In this document: one piece after another, positions 632 through 36,130 of the stretch | How the letters are laid out: each line of letters starts with the position of its first letter | Numbering within the stretch: position 1 is the stretch's first letter | Origin: Desulfobulbaceae bacterium | GTDB lineage: Bacteria > Desulfobacterota > Desulfobulbia > Desulfobulbales > Desulfobulbaceae | NCBI GenBank assembly: GCA_011389815.1 | Contig: JAABTP010000027.1 | Coordinates: 1 to 36,616 of the forward strand | DNA: 36,616 bases | Reading direction: 5' to 3' | Notes under the pieces: model-generated | The model's database searches: none | Told to the model about the DNA's origin: nothing | What the model saw: the letters and a program-made list of their open reading frames with translations, nothing else | Position numbers and translations under genes: made by a program

Positions 632-940
632 TTAATGAGCATTACCAGCCGCTGCCAGCTCCTCTCTGATAATTTTTCGCAAAATTTCTTCAAAACCATT
701 CTGTTCGGCAATATCCAGCCTGACGATTCTTTTCAAGGTCTCATTGATAAGATGATGGTAGCCCTGCTTTCCGCCCTTTGTTTTAAAATACCGGACAACC
801 TCGGCATCAAGCGCAAGAGTGATGCGCTGTTTTTCTTCATCAGGTTCGAGGTTCCGACGCAAAACAGCCCGGTCGAAATCCGCCTGCGTCACTTGCGGGT
901 ATTCATCCGTAGAGGTTTTTGAAATAGAGTCTCTGTTCAT
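632..940 (-). CDS. BrnA-like (ribbon-helix-helix) antitoxin, orphan
   Basis: A 102-residue protein whose C-terminal half matches the BrnA/CopG-type antitoxin pattern. A short N-terminal segment with TQADFDRA is followed by RITLALDAEVVRYFK and GYHHLINETLKRIV. In BrnA proteins this region forms a ribbon-helix-helix DNA-binding and dimerisation fold. The ATG at 940 has a good ribosome binding site (GGAGGG, about 9 bases upstream). The BrnT toxin gene, which normally precedes brnA, is absent; instead an unrelated 191-residue gene follows on the same strand. The protein probably represses its own promoter through the palindrome at 956-973. Family assignment is from motif appearance. Confidence 0.72.
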   Translation of the reverse strand: MNRDSISKTSTDEYPQVTQADFDRAVLRRNLEPDEEKQRITLALDAEVVRYFKTKGGKQGYHHLINETLKRIVRLDIAEQNGFEEILRKIIREELAAAGNAH

Positions 941-973: not shown

Positions 974-1021
974 TCCGGGAAAATCAGGTGGCAGAATATC
1001 TTGCAAAACTCCTTTCACTCC

Positions 1022-1900
1022 TCAACCCGCTTTACGCGCCAAAAAAATACCATAACAGGAAATACTATCAGCAAAAAAATGAAATTGATCCCGTGTGGAA
1101 TACCAATGATTCTTTGCCTGCTCAGAGCAAACACCAAGGCGATGCGACCAAGCCGCAACCGGATATACTACCTTGGCAACCTGATGCATTCGTAATGAGG
1201 TTGGCAAGATATTTTCCGTAATTTCATCAAAGCTGATATCCTCAAACCCGCTCTCTTCAAGATACCTGCCAAACTGATCCACGTTGAGCACATTCGGTAC
1301 TGCCCAACCAAGCATCCAGCGATTCAGCATCTCCTGTTCATCTTCAGATAACTCTGCCTGTTGCAAAAAACCATCCGCAACAACCAGTCGTCCTCCCGGC
1401 TTAAGCAACCGTGCAGCCTCTTCAAGAAGTTTCTTCTTATCCAAAGCATAACAGCTGCTTTCCAGCACCCAGACCACATCAAAGGACACAGGATCAAGAC
1501 AGGTATCACTGAAGTCTTTACAGAAAAATTGACAAAGATGATCAACATTATTTTTTCGGGCAAAACGCTCTGCCAGGGGAATATGCTGCTCGCAAAGCGT
1601 TACTCCGGTGACTCGGCACTTCATTGTTTTTGCCAGCCAGACCGCGCTGCCGCCAGTGCCGCAACCGGCGTCAAGAACAGTGTCTTCCACAGATATCCGG
1701 GCGGCTTTTGCCATAACAGCATTCATGCGCTCCAGAGCATCCCTATGATCCTTTCTTTGAACGCCTTCCCAATGCCCATCCTCCCAATACCCGTAGTGAA
1801 TATTATTGGTTCCCAGCGAGTACATCTGATGAGGAAAGGTAAAGTTATTGTAATACTCAATAATGTTTTTGTTCATCACATCGTGAACAATCGCTGTCAT
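1022..1900 (-). CDS. SAM-dependent class I methyltransferase
   Basis: A 292-residue Rossmann-fold methyltransferase. Motif I is LDAGCGTG at residues 76-83, the adenosine-binding acidic strand end follows (VTGVTLCEQHI), and the post-II region reads FDVVWVLESSCYALDKK, then LLKPGGRLVVADG. This is the Methyltransf_11/UbiE-like layout. The N-terminal block with YYNNFTF and NIHYGYWEDG resembles small-molecule methyltransferases of the tocopherol/sarcosine-type group, so a metabolite substrate is more likely than protein or nucleic acid; the substrate cannot be told. I chose the ATG at 1900 because AGGAG sits 8 bases upstream, whereas the open frame reaches back to 1951 without a ribosome binding site. 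No neighbours suggest a pathway. Confidence 0.82.
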   Translation of the reverse strand: MTAIVHDVMNKNIIEYYNNFTFPHQMYSLGTNNIHYGYWEDGHWEGVQRKDHRDALERMNAVMAKAARISVEDTVLDAGCGTGGSAVWLAKTMKCRVTGVTLCEQHIPLAERFARKNNVDHLCQFFCKDFSDTCLDPVSFDVVWVLESSCYALDKKKLLEEAARLLKPGGRLVVADGFLQQAELSEDEQEMLNRWMLGWAVPNVLNVDQFGRYLEESGFEDISFDEITENILPTSLRMHQVAKVVYPVAAWSHRLGVCSEQAKNHWYSTRDQFHFFADSISCYGIFLARKAG

Positions 1901-2013
1901 GACTTCACTCCTGAATACATACTGGATCTCAGAGCCTTCCTGATATCTCAAATACTTAATACAAGCTATCCCCTTGCCAGAGCCTTATTCCCGGAAAGGC
2001 CGCTCACCCTCAC

Positions 2014-2094
2014 TTATCCTTTGGCCAGCGAACGAATAAACGGCCCCACAGCCTCTGGCCCTTCTTTATTCATCAACTTAATCATCGCCATCCC
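2014..2094 (-). pseudogene. Detached second copy of the trpA 3' end (26 codons plus stop)
   Basis: Read on the minus strand this segment encodes IKLMNKEGPEAVGPFIRSL followed by AKG and a TAA stop. It aligns without gaps to the last 27 codons of the intact trpA (3024-3104), ending in IGG and TGA there. By hand count 62 of 81 bases agree, with 35 of 36 in the core encoding EGPEAVGPFIRS. It has no body of its own: upstream lies the Rpn gene, whose last codons and stop (2078-2080) overlap this fragment in another frame. It is therefore a severed trpA tail, either the original end displaced by insertion of the Rpn gene or a tail brought in with it. Confidence 0.85.
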
Positions 2095-3019
2095 CCTTTT
2101 TCAACCCCTGAAGCTCTTCAATCGATAACCCTGTAATCTCCGCAATTGCCTCTATATCCAAGCTCCCGGAAGCAAGCAGCTTGACCGCAACTTCTCTTTT
2201 CCCCTCAATTTGCCCTTCGGCCCTTCCTTCGGCCCTTCCTTCGGCCCTTCCTTTCTCCTTTCCTTTTCTTTCACCCTTGATGACCCCTATGGTATAGGAT
2301 GATTCCACCATACTTGCCTGATAATGAAGATCATCCTGATATCTTTCATAGGCCAGACGCTCTTCTTCGGGAAGCTTCAATATATCCAGTTCCTGCTTGG
2401 CCTTCCTGATCCCCTTGGCCTTGAAATCCTCCCTGATCTCTTCGTTTTTCAGGAAATAGATCCACTCGTCAAGGCTGTCTTTAGCTATATCATCAAAGTT
2501 GTTCACTTTGATCAGATAATACTCCGGGAATATTTCATGAATTTTACTTTTCCCGTAGAGTTCCTGCTGCTCCTCGGAAAGTTGCAAGAGATCCTGAGAG
2601 TGAAGACCTTTGAACGCTGTTGTTCCGTGGTAAATATAATCGCTGCCTTGGCCCAGATCAAAATAGAGGATGTTTATGGAGATAACCTTGACTATCTCCG
2701 AGTACGCAGCACTTTTTTCGATATGTTCTGTTATAACTTTCGAGGTGCCGAACACTATCCTTTGGAGATAATCGAATTCCCGGTCGTACTGGACCTCAAT
2801 GATGATAATCTCTTCTTTATCATTCTTTACTTTCAGATCCACCCTGTTAAACTTATCCTTGCTGTCCTCCTTGTTGCTTTCACTTTCGAGCAGCTCAAGA
2901 ATACGTATATTTTCTCTGAGGAGTTCGCTGAGAAAACCTTCAAGTATCTCGAAGTTGGCTTTGCTCCTCAACAACTTCTTCATTGCCCAGTCAAAACTGA
3001 TCAGTTTCCGTTTCGACAT
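2078..3019 (-). CDS. Rpn family recombination-promoting nuclease (PD-(D/E)XK)
   Basis: A 313-residue protein of the Rpn/PDDEXK family transposase group (YhgA-like). The N-terminal phrase ISFDWAMKKLL is typical, and the nuclease core shows VDLKVKNDKEEIIIIEVQ near residues 60-80, carrying the catalytic D...ExQ. The C-terminus has a Gly/Arg/Glu-rich spacer (EGRA three times) and a helical tail with ITGLSIEELQGL, as usual for the family. Known members in E. coli are DNA endonucleases that raise RecA-independent recombination. The ATG at 3019 follows a G-rich ribosome binding site and lies only 4 bases after the trpA stop. Its 3' end runs into a second trpA tail, so the gene sits between two copies of that sequence. 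Its role here is probably selfish or recombinational. Confidence 0.85.
   Translation of the reverse strand: MSKRKLISFDWAMKKLLRSKANFEILEGFLSELLRENIRILELLESESNKEDSKDKFNRVDLKVKNDKEEIIIIEVQYDREFDYLQRIVFGTSKVITEHIEKSAAYSEIVKVISINILYFDLGQGSDYIYHGTTAFKGLHSQDLLQLSEEQQELYGKSKIHEIFPEYYLIKVNNFDDIAKDSLDEWIYFLKNEEIREDFKAKGIRKAKQELDILKLPEEERLAYERYQDDLHYQASMVESSYTIGVIKGERKGKEKGRAEGRAEGRAEGQIEGKREVAVKLLASGSLDIEAIAEITGLSIEELQGLKKGDGDD
2218..2253 (-). repeat. 12-bp repeat, three copies, inside the Rpn gene
   Basis: Three perfect tandem copies of CGGCCCTTCCTT (plus strand) encode the Glu-Gly-Arg-Ala repeats of the flexible spacer in the Rpn nuclease. Copy number at such spacers in this family is often variable because of slippage. 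Confidence 0.85.
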
Positions 3020-3023
3020 TTTA

Positions 3024-3797
3024 TCACCCCCCAATAAGCGAACGAATAAACGGCCCCACCGCCTCTGGCCCTTCCTTATCCACCAATTTGATGGTCGCAG
3101 TCCCGATAACCGCCATATCCGCCTTGCCCTCCAGCAGGGCCACATCCTCACGGCTGCTGATCCCGAAGCCCACTGCAAGCGGCAGGTTCGTTGCCCGACG
3201 GCAACGCAGGAGATATTGCGAAAGGCCGTCGTCCATTGCGGTCTGCTTGCCCGTCACTCCCTTACGGGCCACGCAGTAGACAAACCCACTACCCTGCCCT
3301 GCCACCTCAGCCATGCGTTCGTCCGTTGAGGTCGGGGTAAAAAACATAATGGCCGCCATATCCTTTTCCCTGGCCAGACACAGATAGTCTTGCCCCTCTT
3401 CCGGCGGCAGGTCAGGAATAATAAAACCCTTCATGCCGATATCCGCTGCCCGGTCAATAAAGGTATTCAGGCCGTAGCGGAACACAATGTTGTAATAGGT
3501 CATAAAAAAGAAATGAACCTGAGGGAAATCCTCCACTATCTCCTTGGCAAAGGCAAAGCTATCCTCAACCCGAATCCCGGCAGCCAGAGCATCCTGGTTG
3601 GCCTTGAGGATCACCGGGCCGTCCGCCATAGGCTCGGAAAAGGGAATCTGGATCTCAATGCAATCCACCCCGTTTTCCGCCATCTGACGAATGACCTCCC
3701 GGTTGACCTCAAGTGATGGGTATCCCAGAACCAGATGGGTCATGAGAAGGATGGGCTTTTTTTCCAGTCGTTGCTGTAAATCCTGTTGTATATTCAT
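3024..3797 (-). CDS. trpA: Tryptophan synthase alpha chain
   Basis: A 257-residue TIM-barrel enzyme that cleaves indole-3-glycerol phosphate to indole and glyceraldehyde 3-phosphate, normally passing indole to TrpB. The catalytic acids are visible as Glu48 (CIEIQIPFSEP) and Asp59 (MADGP). The phosphate-binding end has AVGFGIS and later MAVIGTATIKL. In the family signature the Gly after Glu-Leu is replaced by Gln (EIQIPF), which occurs in a divergent trpA clade as far as I recall. The ATG at 3797 has AGGA about 9 bases upstream. No other trp genes lie in the window. The last 26 codons are duplicated downstream of the neighbouring Rpn gene, so this C-terminus may be a rebuilt one. Confidence 0.93.
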   Translation of the reverse strand: MNIQQDLQQRLEKKPILLMTHLVLGYPSLEVNREVIRQMAENGVDCIEIQIPFSEPMADGPVILKANQDALAAGIRVEDSFAFAKEIVEDFPQVHFFFMTYYNIVFRYGLNTFIDRAADIGMKGFIIPDLPPEEGQDYLCLAREKDMAAIMFFTPTSTDERMAEVAGQGSGFVYCVARKGVTGKQTAMDDGLSQYLLRCRRATNLPLAVGFGISSREDVALLEGKADMAVIGTATIKLVDKEGPEAVGPFIRSLIGG

Positions 3798-3849: not shown

Positions 3850-3908
3850 GTAGGGGCAGACCTGCGTGTCTGCCCGGCATAAGGGCGAACACACAGGTTC
3901 GCCCCTAC
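3850..3908. repeat. Palindromic repeat of two tandem hairpins
   Basis: A 59-base element in the gap between trpA and the DUF4838 gene. The outer arms are inverted copies starting GTAGGGGC and ending GCCCCTAC. Each half also folds on itself with a perfect 8-bp stem: GGGCAGAC with GTCTGCCC (3854-3875) and GGGCGAAC with GTTCGCCC (3883-3904). The bases that differ between halves change in pairs, so pairing is preserved. This looks like a REP/MITE-type interspersed element; I see only one full copy in the window. It could also act as a bidirectional transcription or RNA-stability barrier. Confidence 0.8.
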
Positions 3909-33647: not shown

Positions 33648-34175
33648 ATAACGACAGCTCATGGGCAGATGACGGAGCAGAACATCTGTTTTGTTTTCTC
33701 CCTGCACGGTCATACCCTCGGGCACTGAAGCCCGACCGACCACCCAGGCAATCGGCACTGTCGGCGCATCTTCGACAACAGCGGGACGCAGGCTGACTGT
33801 TTTGCCGACAATGTTTTTATTTGCCCTGTTGCCGAGGCTGATATTGATCACGCCGCCTTGGCCCACCGTTAGGCCGGTCACATAATTACCGACAATTTTT
33901 TCTGCCGGAGGCAGTCCTGCGGCGACATTGTCCATCGGCAACTGCTGTGTTTCCTTGTAATACTCCTCCACACCCTTTTGGGCGAATTCCGCCATATTGA
34001 ACGCCTCTTCAAGCTGCGTTCTGATCACCCGGTCCTGATAGGACGGGATGGCGATAGTGGAAAGGATGCCCATGATCGCGATGACAATCATCAGTTCAAT
34101 CAGGGTGAATCCCTGCCTGCTCCCGATCATTTTTCCGACCATTTTGCTGTTCTTGACGATCAGTATCCTGCTCAT
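33645..34175 (-). CDS. Type IV pilin, PilA-like, lacking one disulfide Cys
   Basis: A 176-residue prepilin. The leader ends in SRQG and the mature protein starts FTLIELMIVIAIMGILSTIA with Glu5, the canonical prepilin peptidase site and membrane helix. The end of the protein (IAWVVGRASVPEGM, LPMSCRY) matches the usual pilin pattern, in which WVCG and the last SCR Cys form the disulfide loop. Here the first Cys is Val, leaving a single Cys. The ATG at 34175 has AGGA about 7 bases upstream; the leader is long (22 residues). Last gene of the cassette, 15 bases after the pilC-like gene. Confidence 0.92.
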   Translation of the reverse strand: MSRILIVKNSKMVGKMIGSRQGFTLIELMIVIAIMGILSTIAIPSYQDRVIRTQLEEAFNMAEFAQKGVEEYYKETQQLPMDNVAAGLPPAEKIVGNYVTGLTVGQGGVINISLGNRANKNIVGKTVSLRPAVVEDAPTVPIAWVVGRASVPEGMTVQGENKTDVLLRHLPMSCRY

Positions 34176-35737: not shown

Positions 35738-36130
35738 TCACTTTATTGAAGAGTTCTCTTCTTCCCAAGTGACTGGGCCGGTCGGATCATCCTTGCCGAC
35801 AACAGGATGCAGGGTGATGGTCACGCCGCTCTGCCTGCTGTCCTCTCTGTACTTTATTTCAATATTTCCGTTGCTCACTTTGATGCTGCCCACATATTTT
35901 CCCCGGATTGCCTCAGGCAGACCGAGAGCGGCATTATCCGCCGGAAACACGCTGCGATGATCATAATATTCCATCACTTCCCTGCGCACAGGCTGGGAGA
36001 GCGCATAGCCTTCACAGAGAAAGGCCTTATCCCGATAGGCAATGAAGTTCGGGATGGCCACTGCGGCAAGAATTCCAATAACAGCTATGACAACAGTCAG
36101 TTCAATCAGGGTGAAGCCTTTATTGTTCAT
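35738..36130 (-). CDS. Short type IV pilin, first gene of the cassette
   Basis: A 130-residue prepilin with the very short leader MNNKG and the mature start FTLIELTVVIAVIGILAAVA, which has Glu5. The C-terminal domain matches its paralogues in ITLHPVVGKDDPTGPVTW but stops soon after (EEENSSIK), with no C-terminal Cys. Cys and Asp-rich loops are absent; a single Cys is in FLCEGY. I chose the ATG at 36130 because GGAG lies 10 bases upstream and the leader then fits; the open frame reaches 36250. It is 12 bases ahead of the next pilin-like gene. Confidence 0.9.
   Translation of the reverse strand: MNNKGFTLIELTVVIAVIGILAAVAIPNFIAYRDKAFLCEGYALSQPVRREVMEYYDHRSVFPADNAALGLPEAIRGKYVGSIKVSNGNIEIKYREDSRQSGVTITLHPVVGKDDPTGPVTWEEENSSIK

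What the first reader, a model, noticed from the sequence alone, without database searches (positions are those of the whole stretch)
2014..3104. Rpn nuclease gene bracketed by two copies of the trpA tail
The last 27 codons of trpA (3024-3104) recur without gaps at 2014-2094, just after the Rpn gene; 62 of 81 bases agree and 35 of 36 in the core. The Rpn start lies 4 bases after the intact trpA stop, and its stop codon falls inside the second tail in another frame. This is what an insertion into the 3' end of trpA would leave if the incoming DNA brought its own trpA tail and so kept the host gene working. Rpn proteins are known to promote recombination, so the gene may mobilise itself this way. 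The divergence between the two tails indicates that they came from different trpA alleles.
Basis: partly seen in the sequence, partly recalled or inferred. Interest (0 to 1): 0.72.

Follow-up and report, generated by a model that had tools for sequence, protein, structure and literature searches.

The report
Nuclease gene between two trpA ends
In a cable bacterium a small nuclease gene sits between the working end of a tryptophan gene and a second, altered copy of that end, one example of a recurring way in which toxin and defence-like genes settle beside housekeeping genes without breaking them.

Summary
In detail: the last 27 codons of trpA (3024-3104, minus) recur at 2014-2094 behind an intact PF12784 (Rpn-type) gene; 62 of 81 bases agree, 35 of 36 in the core. 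The host genus is Candidatus Electrothrix. It is not private to trpA or Rpn. Of 119 Rpn hits examined in seven Electrothrix genomes, ten (about eight events) are bracketed by a copy of a neighbouring gene's 5' or 3' end (uvrB, hisI, ppx and others). Other cargo has similar brackets: PIN toxin loci (11 of 30 with flanking repeats), an AAA_21 ATPase pair behind aroK, a mobile-mystery HTH-Fic pair. Short-range repeats outside paralogues number 28 in 480 kb of two Electrothrix genomes, 2 in 480 kb of two sister genera. At the uvrB start two remnants are stacked. Several copies differ mostly at synonymous sites (uvrB dS 0.88, dN 0.07), as different alleles would; at trpA alone this is only suggestive (P 0.018). 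Best reading: additive, homology-anchored integration of short DNA carrying cargo plus a gene end, Rpn being a passenger. Self-mobilisation by Rpn is not supported. Which trpA tail was imported is undecided.

The parts
3024..3797 (-). trpA, intact, 257 aa
   Evidence: Pfam PF00290 E 3e-67, NCBIfam TIGR00262 over cut-off
3024..3104 (-). working trpA tail (T), last 27 codons
3039..3074 (-). core of T, 35 of 36 bases shared with the second tail
2078..3019 (-). Rpn-type PD-(D/E)XK nuclease gene, 313 aa, the cargo; G+C of 2095-3023 is 0.438 against 0.545 in trpA
   Evidence: PF12784 and TIGR01784 over cut-off; G+C
2014..2094 (-). second trpA tail (T'), 62/81 identical to T; overlaps the Rpn 3' end in another frame
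2029..2064 (-). core of T'; identical over its 36 bases to trpA of G018
1022..1951 (-). SAM methyltransferase gene beyond T'
   Evidence: Pfam; no nucleotide match in the fetched trpA loci of the six relatives
978..1030 (-). stretch 85% identical over 54 columns to the DNA directly after trpA in G034; hints that the T' side continues into an old trpA-downstream region

Best explanation
Additive, homology-anchored integration. A short piece of DNA from a related cell carried the Rpn gene next to a trpA 3' end. It recombined with the resident trpA through the shared tail by what amounts to a single crossover (Campbell-like, for instance after the piece had been circularised by end joining). The result is resident gene - tail - cargo - second, truncated tail - resident downstream DNA: nothing resident is lost, one tail completes the gene, the other is left to decay. 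Selection keeps only events that leave the gene whole, so survivors lie at gene ends. Rpn is one of several kinds of passenger, not the engine. Shown: the bracket, its recurrence with Rpn and with other cargo, stacked remnants at uvrB, allele-like divergence at uvrB. Inferred: the single-crossover step, a circular or tandem intermediate, the route by which the DNA enters, and that the trpA case arose this way.
For: Recurrence: 29 of 119 Rpn hits have a flanking direct repeat; 23 of 119 have one within 300 bp on both sides, and 12 of these remain after taking out repeats between neighbouring Rpn-family copies, against 3 of 189 other ORFs (Fisher P 0.0016; the 12 include one interspersed repeat and two pairs of orthologous loci). 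Ten of the 12 are gene ends by inspection. Other cargo: 11 of 30 PIN loci with flanking repeats (looser rule). Region scans: 28 repeat pairs outside internal repeats and two-ORF pairs in 480 kb of G041 and G027, 2 in 480 kb of G058 and G005; by the automatic gene-end rule 7 against 0. uvrB stack: the 265 bp just upstream of uvrB in G018 lie in G041 and G047 just outside the outermost uvrB remnant, so resident DNA was kept. Alleles: uvrB remnant against intact gene dS 0.88, dN 0.073; 67 nonsynonymous changes expected if one allele had decayed, 13.5 seen. Six short pairs pooled (trpA among them): 58 expected, 26 seen. In two young cases the shared segment ends exactly at the stop codon (G027, 403 bp, 99%) or 5 bp before ATG (L176, 119 bp, 98%). 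Precedent: in E. coli, 56 of 60 Lac- clones gave a PCR product for a duplicated homologous end, 14 sequenced ones measuring 109-950 bp, ascribed by the authors to single crossing-over of circularised DNA (passages of PMC3240628).
Against: At trpA alone the allele test is weak (P 0.018, 27 codons), and dS of T against T' (0.49 over 23 codons) is no larger than between species. The decay tests assume an expected dN/dS of 0.525 and Poisson counts. Low dN/dS could also arise if the intact gene was replaced by another allele after the insertion; intact uvrB is mosaic between G041 and G047, 87-99% by window. T ends in GGGGGGTGA like G047, which speaks for T being resident, while 978-1030 speaks for T' lying on the resident side. 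No donor with trpA next to a full Rpn was found: trpA in 0 of 80 named Rpn loci. No circular intermediate can be seen in assemblies.
Confidence: 0.5

Rival explanations
1. [quoted passage not shown] the copies are identical at birth and the one outside the gene decays.
For: Same topology; direct repeats of tens to hundreds of bp; youngest copies 98-99% identical. The term and its link to RM genes are in passages of PMC1643837 and PMC3031569.
Against: uvrB and the pooled pairs have far fewer nonsynonymous changes than decay predicts; repeat ends at start or stop codons in two young cases. Later allele replacement in the intact gene could explain the first point away.
Confidence: 0.27
2. Rpn drives its own spread: the nuclease cuts the target and recombination with donor DNA copies the Rpn gene in, like a homing gene.
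For: E. coli Rpn proteins raise RecA-independent recombination and cut DNA (abstract of PMC5350276); rpnC appears to have been introduced twice between panC and panD (section).
Against: Brackets of a like kind hold PIN, mobile-mystery HTH-Fic, AAA_21-pair and DUF4365 cargo. PMC10327210 section 4 finds no evidence of autonomous transposition. A shared target motif was not searched for.
Confidence: 0.08
3. Homology-facilitated illegitimate recombination of linear DNA: homologous at one end, illegitimate at the other.
For: Known in transformable bacteria with about 1-kb inserts (passages of PMC3240628); proposed for T6SS immunity arrays (passages of PMC5361080).
Against: Generally deletes about as much resident DNA as it inserts; at uvrB the resident upstream DNA is still next to the remnant.
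Confidence: 0.1
4. Chance, or local tandem duplication of trpA followed by deletion and an unrelated Rpn insertion.
For: None beyond possibility.
Against: E about 1e-17; recurrence at other genes; in G000 trpA matches only the intact gene and the 25-codon tail.
Confidence: 0.03

Closest known systems
Insertion with long target duplication of restriction-modification genes in Helicobacter pylori (Nobusato et al. 2000, not read; known here through passages of PMC1643837 and PMC3031569)
   Same: Short gene cluster bracketed by long direct repeats of the target
   Different: Cargo is Rpn, toxin-antitoxin and others; copies can look like different alleles; remnants can be stacked
Prophage e14 in icd of E. 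coli K-12 (passage of PMC11148124: 165-bp icd duplication with 12 nucleotide exchanges)
   Same: One end completes the host gene, the other stays at the far side as a divergent remnant
   Different: e14 is a prophage with an integrase; here a 0.9-kb insert holds only Rpn and the targets differ
Single-crossover integration of circularised DNA with partial duplication of the homologous end (passages of PMC3240628)
   Same: Additive, duplication of part of the homologous end
   Different: Laboratory plasmid DNA in E. coli, not natural cargo
T6SS orphan immunity-gene arrays in Vibrio cholerae (passages of PMC5361080)
   Same: Incoming module shifts rather than removes a resident part; serial stacking
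   Different: There immunity genes are retained; here the remnants are short gene ends
rpn genes of E. coli and other bacteria (PMC5350276 and PMC10327210: abstracts and named sections)
   Same: Horizontally moving single genes for PD-(D/E)XK nucleases
   Different: PMC10327210 reports no identifiable target-site duplications at rpn genes; some PF12784-type genes here have long gene-end repeats

Membership tests
Rpn / PD-(D/E)XK nuclease family transposase (PF12784, TIGR01784) | full-length domain above curated cut-off | tested here: met
   91.8 bits against 27.4 and 84.1 against 52.1
Rpn / PD-(D/E)XK nuclease family transposase (PF12784, TIGR01784) | DNA cleavage and toxicity | not testable with these tools
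   no biochemistry
Insertion with long target duplication | long direct repeats of the target on both sides of the insert | tested here: met
Insertion with long target duplication | comparison with an otherwise identical empty allele | tested here: inconclusive
   five of six relatives lack the insert at trpA, but downstream synteny is too poor for a base-exact empty site
Insertion with long target duplication | copies identical at birth | tested here: inconclusive
   98-99% in the youngest cases; allele-like divergence at uvrB
Homology-facilitated illegitimate recombination | deletion of resident DNA at the illegitimate junction | tested here: not met
   uvrB upstream DNA kept next to the remnant; tested at uvrB only
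Single-crossover (Campbell-like) integration | partial duplication, one copy truncated, nothing resident lost | tested here: met
   duplication and truncation at trpA and others; no loss of resident DNA shown at uvrB only
Single-crossover (Campbell-like) integration | circular or tandem intermediate | not testable with these tools
   not visible in assemblies
Integrase-borne element restoring a gene end (e14 type) | integrase gene in the insert | tested here: not met
   the 942 bp between the trpA repeats hold the Rpn gene and no other gene of note

The most novel reading that the evidence does not exclude
Cable bacteria have a genome-wide, recurrent route by which small defence and toxin-antitoxin cargo is added at the ends of housekeeping genes through single-crossover integration, each event supplying an intact gene end and leaving the other as a fossil; repeated events build dated stacks (resident flank - oldest remnant - cargo - younger remnant - cargo - gene), as at the uvrB start.
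Probability: 0.4. Interest if true: 0.72.

Novelty: new variant of a known kind. Interest (0 to 1): 0.57.

Why it matters
How small genes such as rpn and toxin-antitoxin pairs move without integrase or transposase is an open question; a section of PMC10327210 says that rpn genes show no identifiable target-site duplications. Here a share of PF12784-type rpn genes carries a readable scar: a second copy of the neighbouring gene's end. If it holds up, the scar gives a sequence-only way to find capture events, to order them in time where they are stacked, and to ask whether the copies came from another species. It also warns that short gene-end fragments beside accessory genes may be insertion footprints rather than degraded paralogues.

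Tried and rejected
Tried without result: trpA beside any of 80 named Rpn loci (0 of 80); DNA synteny behind trpA (G027 and G018 share it, G000 and G034 share two short matches); papers on cable bacteria combined with transfer or mobile-element terms (0 papers each); on toxin-antitoxin genes with partial duplication (2 listed, none opened); 'mobile mystery protein' (4 listed, none opened).

Dropped or corrected: L132 and L098 are interspersed repeats. Repeats between neighbouring Rpn copies (L101, L128, L112, L090, L009, L145) and in the C190-type clusters (L014, L150, L134) are not gene-end cases. L125 is an intergenic repeat. L212 repeats part of Rpn as well and is probably a tandem event. 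The FnIII pair was read out of frame and is not used. G039's second trpA match ends at a contig end. Of the 11 PIN loci with repeats I inspected nine, and they include two orthologous pairs (L262/L265, L271/L283); the toxin was taken to lie mid-locus, and five of the 30 loci were short. ORF calls in the scans are crude: labels the trpA case itself 'internal repeat' and the 403-bp G027 case 'two ORFs'. Of its seven gene-end pairs six lie in regions that I inspected: aroK and atpG are clear, 58098 belongs to a segment whose ORFs look like transposases by eye, the three in G027 (two of them at one gene) are unclear; the seventh was not inspected. G005 has a near-miss, a 59-bp repeat at the end of a 118-aa ORF, just under the 120-aa limit. 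So 7 against 0 is weaker than it looks; clear cases, the 403-bp one added, are 3 against 0. I lowered the novel case from 0.42 to 0.40 on this recount. One search missed the trpA repeat through a wrong ORF start; one search mended that. ComEC (PF03772) is present in the host, but the same search also rings in E. coli, so it says little about competence.

Full report
What is in the window. The last 27 codons of trpA (3024-3104, minus strand) recur at 2014-2094, 62 of 81 bases, just behind a 313-aa gene of the PF12784/TIGR01784 family. The nuclease gene starts 4 bases after the trpA stop and its last codons are read out of the second tail in another frame. Core (35/36) and rest (27/45) differ in identity (Fisher P 5e-5), but the core is conserved in the genus anyway, 32-35 of 36 against T.

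Host. G034 and G052 are in the same genus as G000, and their contigs have the lengths of named records of Candidatus Electrothrix gigas AU1_5 and Ca. E. aarhusensis MCF (for instance 30,415 and 18,699 bases). The window is therefore from a cable bacterium.

Relatives at trpA. trpA matched in 47 of 59 genomes of the family, G000 included; 30 loci were fetched. In the DNA held downstream (about 1.5 kb in most, 191-668 bp in three), Rpn appears in 2 of 30: G000 itself and G034. Of the six genus relatives five have a single tail and no Rpn there. G034 has the C-terminal third of an Rpn gene directly after trpA, a 107-codon ORF, and no second tail. G041 has an N-terminal Rpn fragment about 3.7 kb further on. 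Directly behind trpA in G034 lies a stretch that matches window 978-1030, beyond T' and the methyltransferase gene; this hints that T' is on the resident side.

Is it general? PF12784 gave 23 matches in G000 and 9-31 in seven other genomes of the genus. I examined 119 of the 139 listed for seven genomes; G055 was left out as incomplete and weak or fragmentary hits were dropped by hand. 29 of 119 had a direct repeat between the 1 kb upstream and 1.5 kb downstream. Gene-end cases by inspection are ten loci, about eight events: trpA 3' (window); uvrB 3' (L007); hisI 5' (L141); ppx 5', degraded (L012); the start of a CysZ-like gene (L091; below the family's cut-off); the tail of a convergent gene (L079 and L099, orthologous); the tail of a gene with an fn3 domain (L152 and L001); and 27 bp at the start of a 234-aa ORF (L080, short) (names). 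Other ORFs of 250-500 aa in the same loci: 10 of 189 with any repeat, 3 of 189 tight. Among 80 named Rpn loci, the best of 546, seven of them Electrothrix, 11 of 70 testable had repeats, none of the 11 in Electrothrix. L176 (Desulfamplus, 119 bp, 98%, 5' end) and L202 (Desulfuromonadales, tail of a convergent hexapeptide-repeat gene, 87%) are clear; the rest are unresolved.

Not special to Rpn. Of 30 PIN (PF01850) loci in the genus 11 had flanking repeats, and L261, L271, L274, L276 and L283 look like duplicated gene ends. In 280 kb of G041 the aroK 3' end is repeated behind an AAA_21 ATPase gene and a second ORF without Pfam match, and the atpG 3' end recurs around small ORFs. In G027 the last 134 codons of a 745-aa ORF (403 bp, 99%) recur behind a pair that passes the cut-offs for mobile mystery proteins A and B, an HTH and a Fic protein. 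Outside internal repeats and pairs of ORFs, one search counts 16 short-range repeat pairs in 280 kb of G041 and 12 in 200 kb of G027, against 0 in 280 kb of G058 and 2 in 200 kb of G005, two other genera of the family. By the automatic gene-end rule it is 7 against 0, but only two of the six inspected are clear, one clear case was missed by the rule, and G005 has a near-miss. So the trait looks common in this lineage; that it is confined to it is not shown, the more so as Rpn loci of other phyla have repeats too.

Stacking at uvrB. G041 and G047 carry, upstream of uvrB, a uvrB start open for about 100 codons (remnant 1) before a 275-aa ORF without Pfam match, and further out a shorter, weak one (23 residues, E 9e-4; 50 bp at 84%, E 3e-7). 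The 265 bp found just upstream of uvrB in G018 lie just outside the outer remnant in both. In G047, not in G041, the gene outside remnant 1 (DUF4365) is homologous to the one directly upstream of intact uvrB in G052. Two successive additive insertions explain this order.

Alleles or decay? Remnant 1 differs from intact uvrB at dS 0.88 but dN 0.073 (G041; 0.84 and 0.060 in G047). If one duplicate had decayed, 67 nonsynonymous changes would be expected; 13.5 are seen. The remnants of G041 and G047 are 98-99% alike, the intact starts only 87-94%, so the intact gene has taken in other alleles, at the insertion or later; the data do not separate the two. Six short pairs pooled, trpA among them, give 26 nonsynonymous changes against 58 expected (P 2e-6). 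trpA alone gives 9 against 17.7 (P 0.018). Along trpA, G000 is closest or equal closest to G041 or G047 in the first nine 78-bp windows (for instance 6 against 10-18 differences), but equally far, 11-12 differences, from all six in the last 72 bp, as expected if the end was exchanged.

Mechanism. Topology, kept resident flank (shown at uvrB), truncated second copy and ends at start or stop codons in two young cases fit a single-crossover integration. PMC3240628 (passages) reports such products in E. coli, with a circularised molecule as explanation. A staggered break with long target duplication gives the same topology and remains the main rival, above all if intact genes are later overwritten by recombination. 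Rpn may well act as an anti-phage toxin (abstract of PMC10327210) that is worth keeping once captured; nothing here shows that it causes the capture.

Known or new? Long target duplications, e14-type gene-end replacement and single-crossover duplications are known. I did not find in nine searches of open papers their frequency in cable bacteria, the link to rpn cargo, or the stacked remnants; subscription papers were not searched. [quoted passage not shown] about a tenth of the PF12784-type genes examined here have a gene-end repeat that could count as one.

Noticed in passing
L331 (G047) 6.2-10.0 kb and L332 (G041): Two nested uvrB 5' remnants upstream of intact uvrB, with a cargo ORF between them and the gene; the DNA between the remnants differs between the two species.
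   Followed up: partly
L160:3700-4023 (G034, directly after trpA): A C-terminal Rpn piece with its own ATG (107 aa) directly behind trpA, like a free-standing RpnS antitoxin.
   Followed up: partly
window 3015-3035: The last trpA codons (GGG GGG) could serve as ribosome-binding site for the Rpn gene; G034 has GGGGAG there.
   Followed up: no
window 632-940: BrnA-like antitoxin gene (PF14384 over cut-off) beyond the methyltransferase gene; no BrnT partner was looked for.
   Followed up: no
L376:4347-6371 (G027:C1 about 2484347-2486371): Mobile mystery protein A and B genes (HTH and Fic) bracketed by a 403-bp, 99% identical gene-end duplication, among the youngest cases seen.
   Followed up: partly
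L007 (G000 C56): uvrB - Rpn - uvrB tail - 1290-aa ORF - second Rpn (86% identical DNA): a composite locus; in G018 one Rpn follows uvrB.
   Followed up: partly
window 3850-3908 and L132: GTAGGGGCGAACC-type interspersed repeat; the L132 copy has nine matches elsewhere in the fetched Rpn regions, one in the window. The window place was read by eye.
   Followed up: no
window 34043-34112 and 36049-36118: A 69-bp, 77% direct repeat near the end of the window.
   Followed up: no
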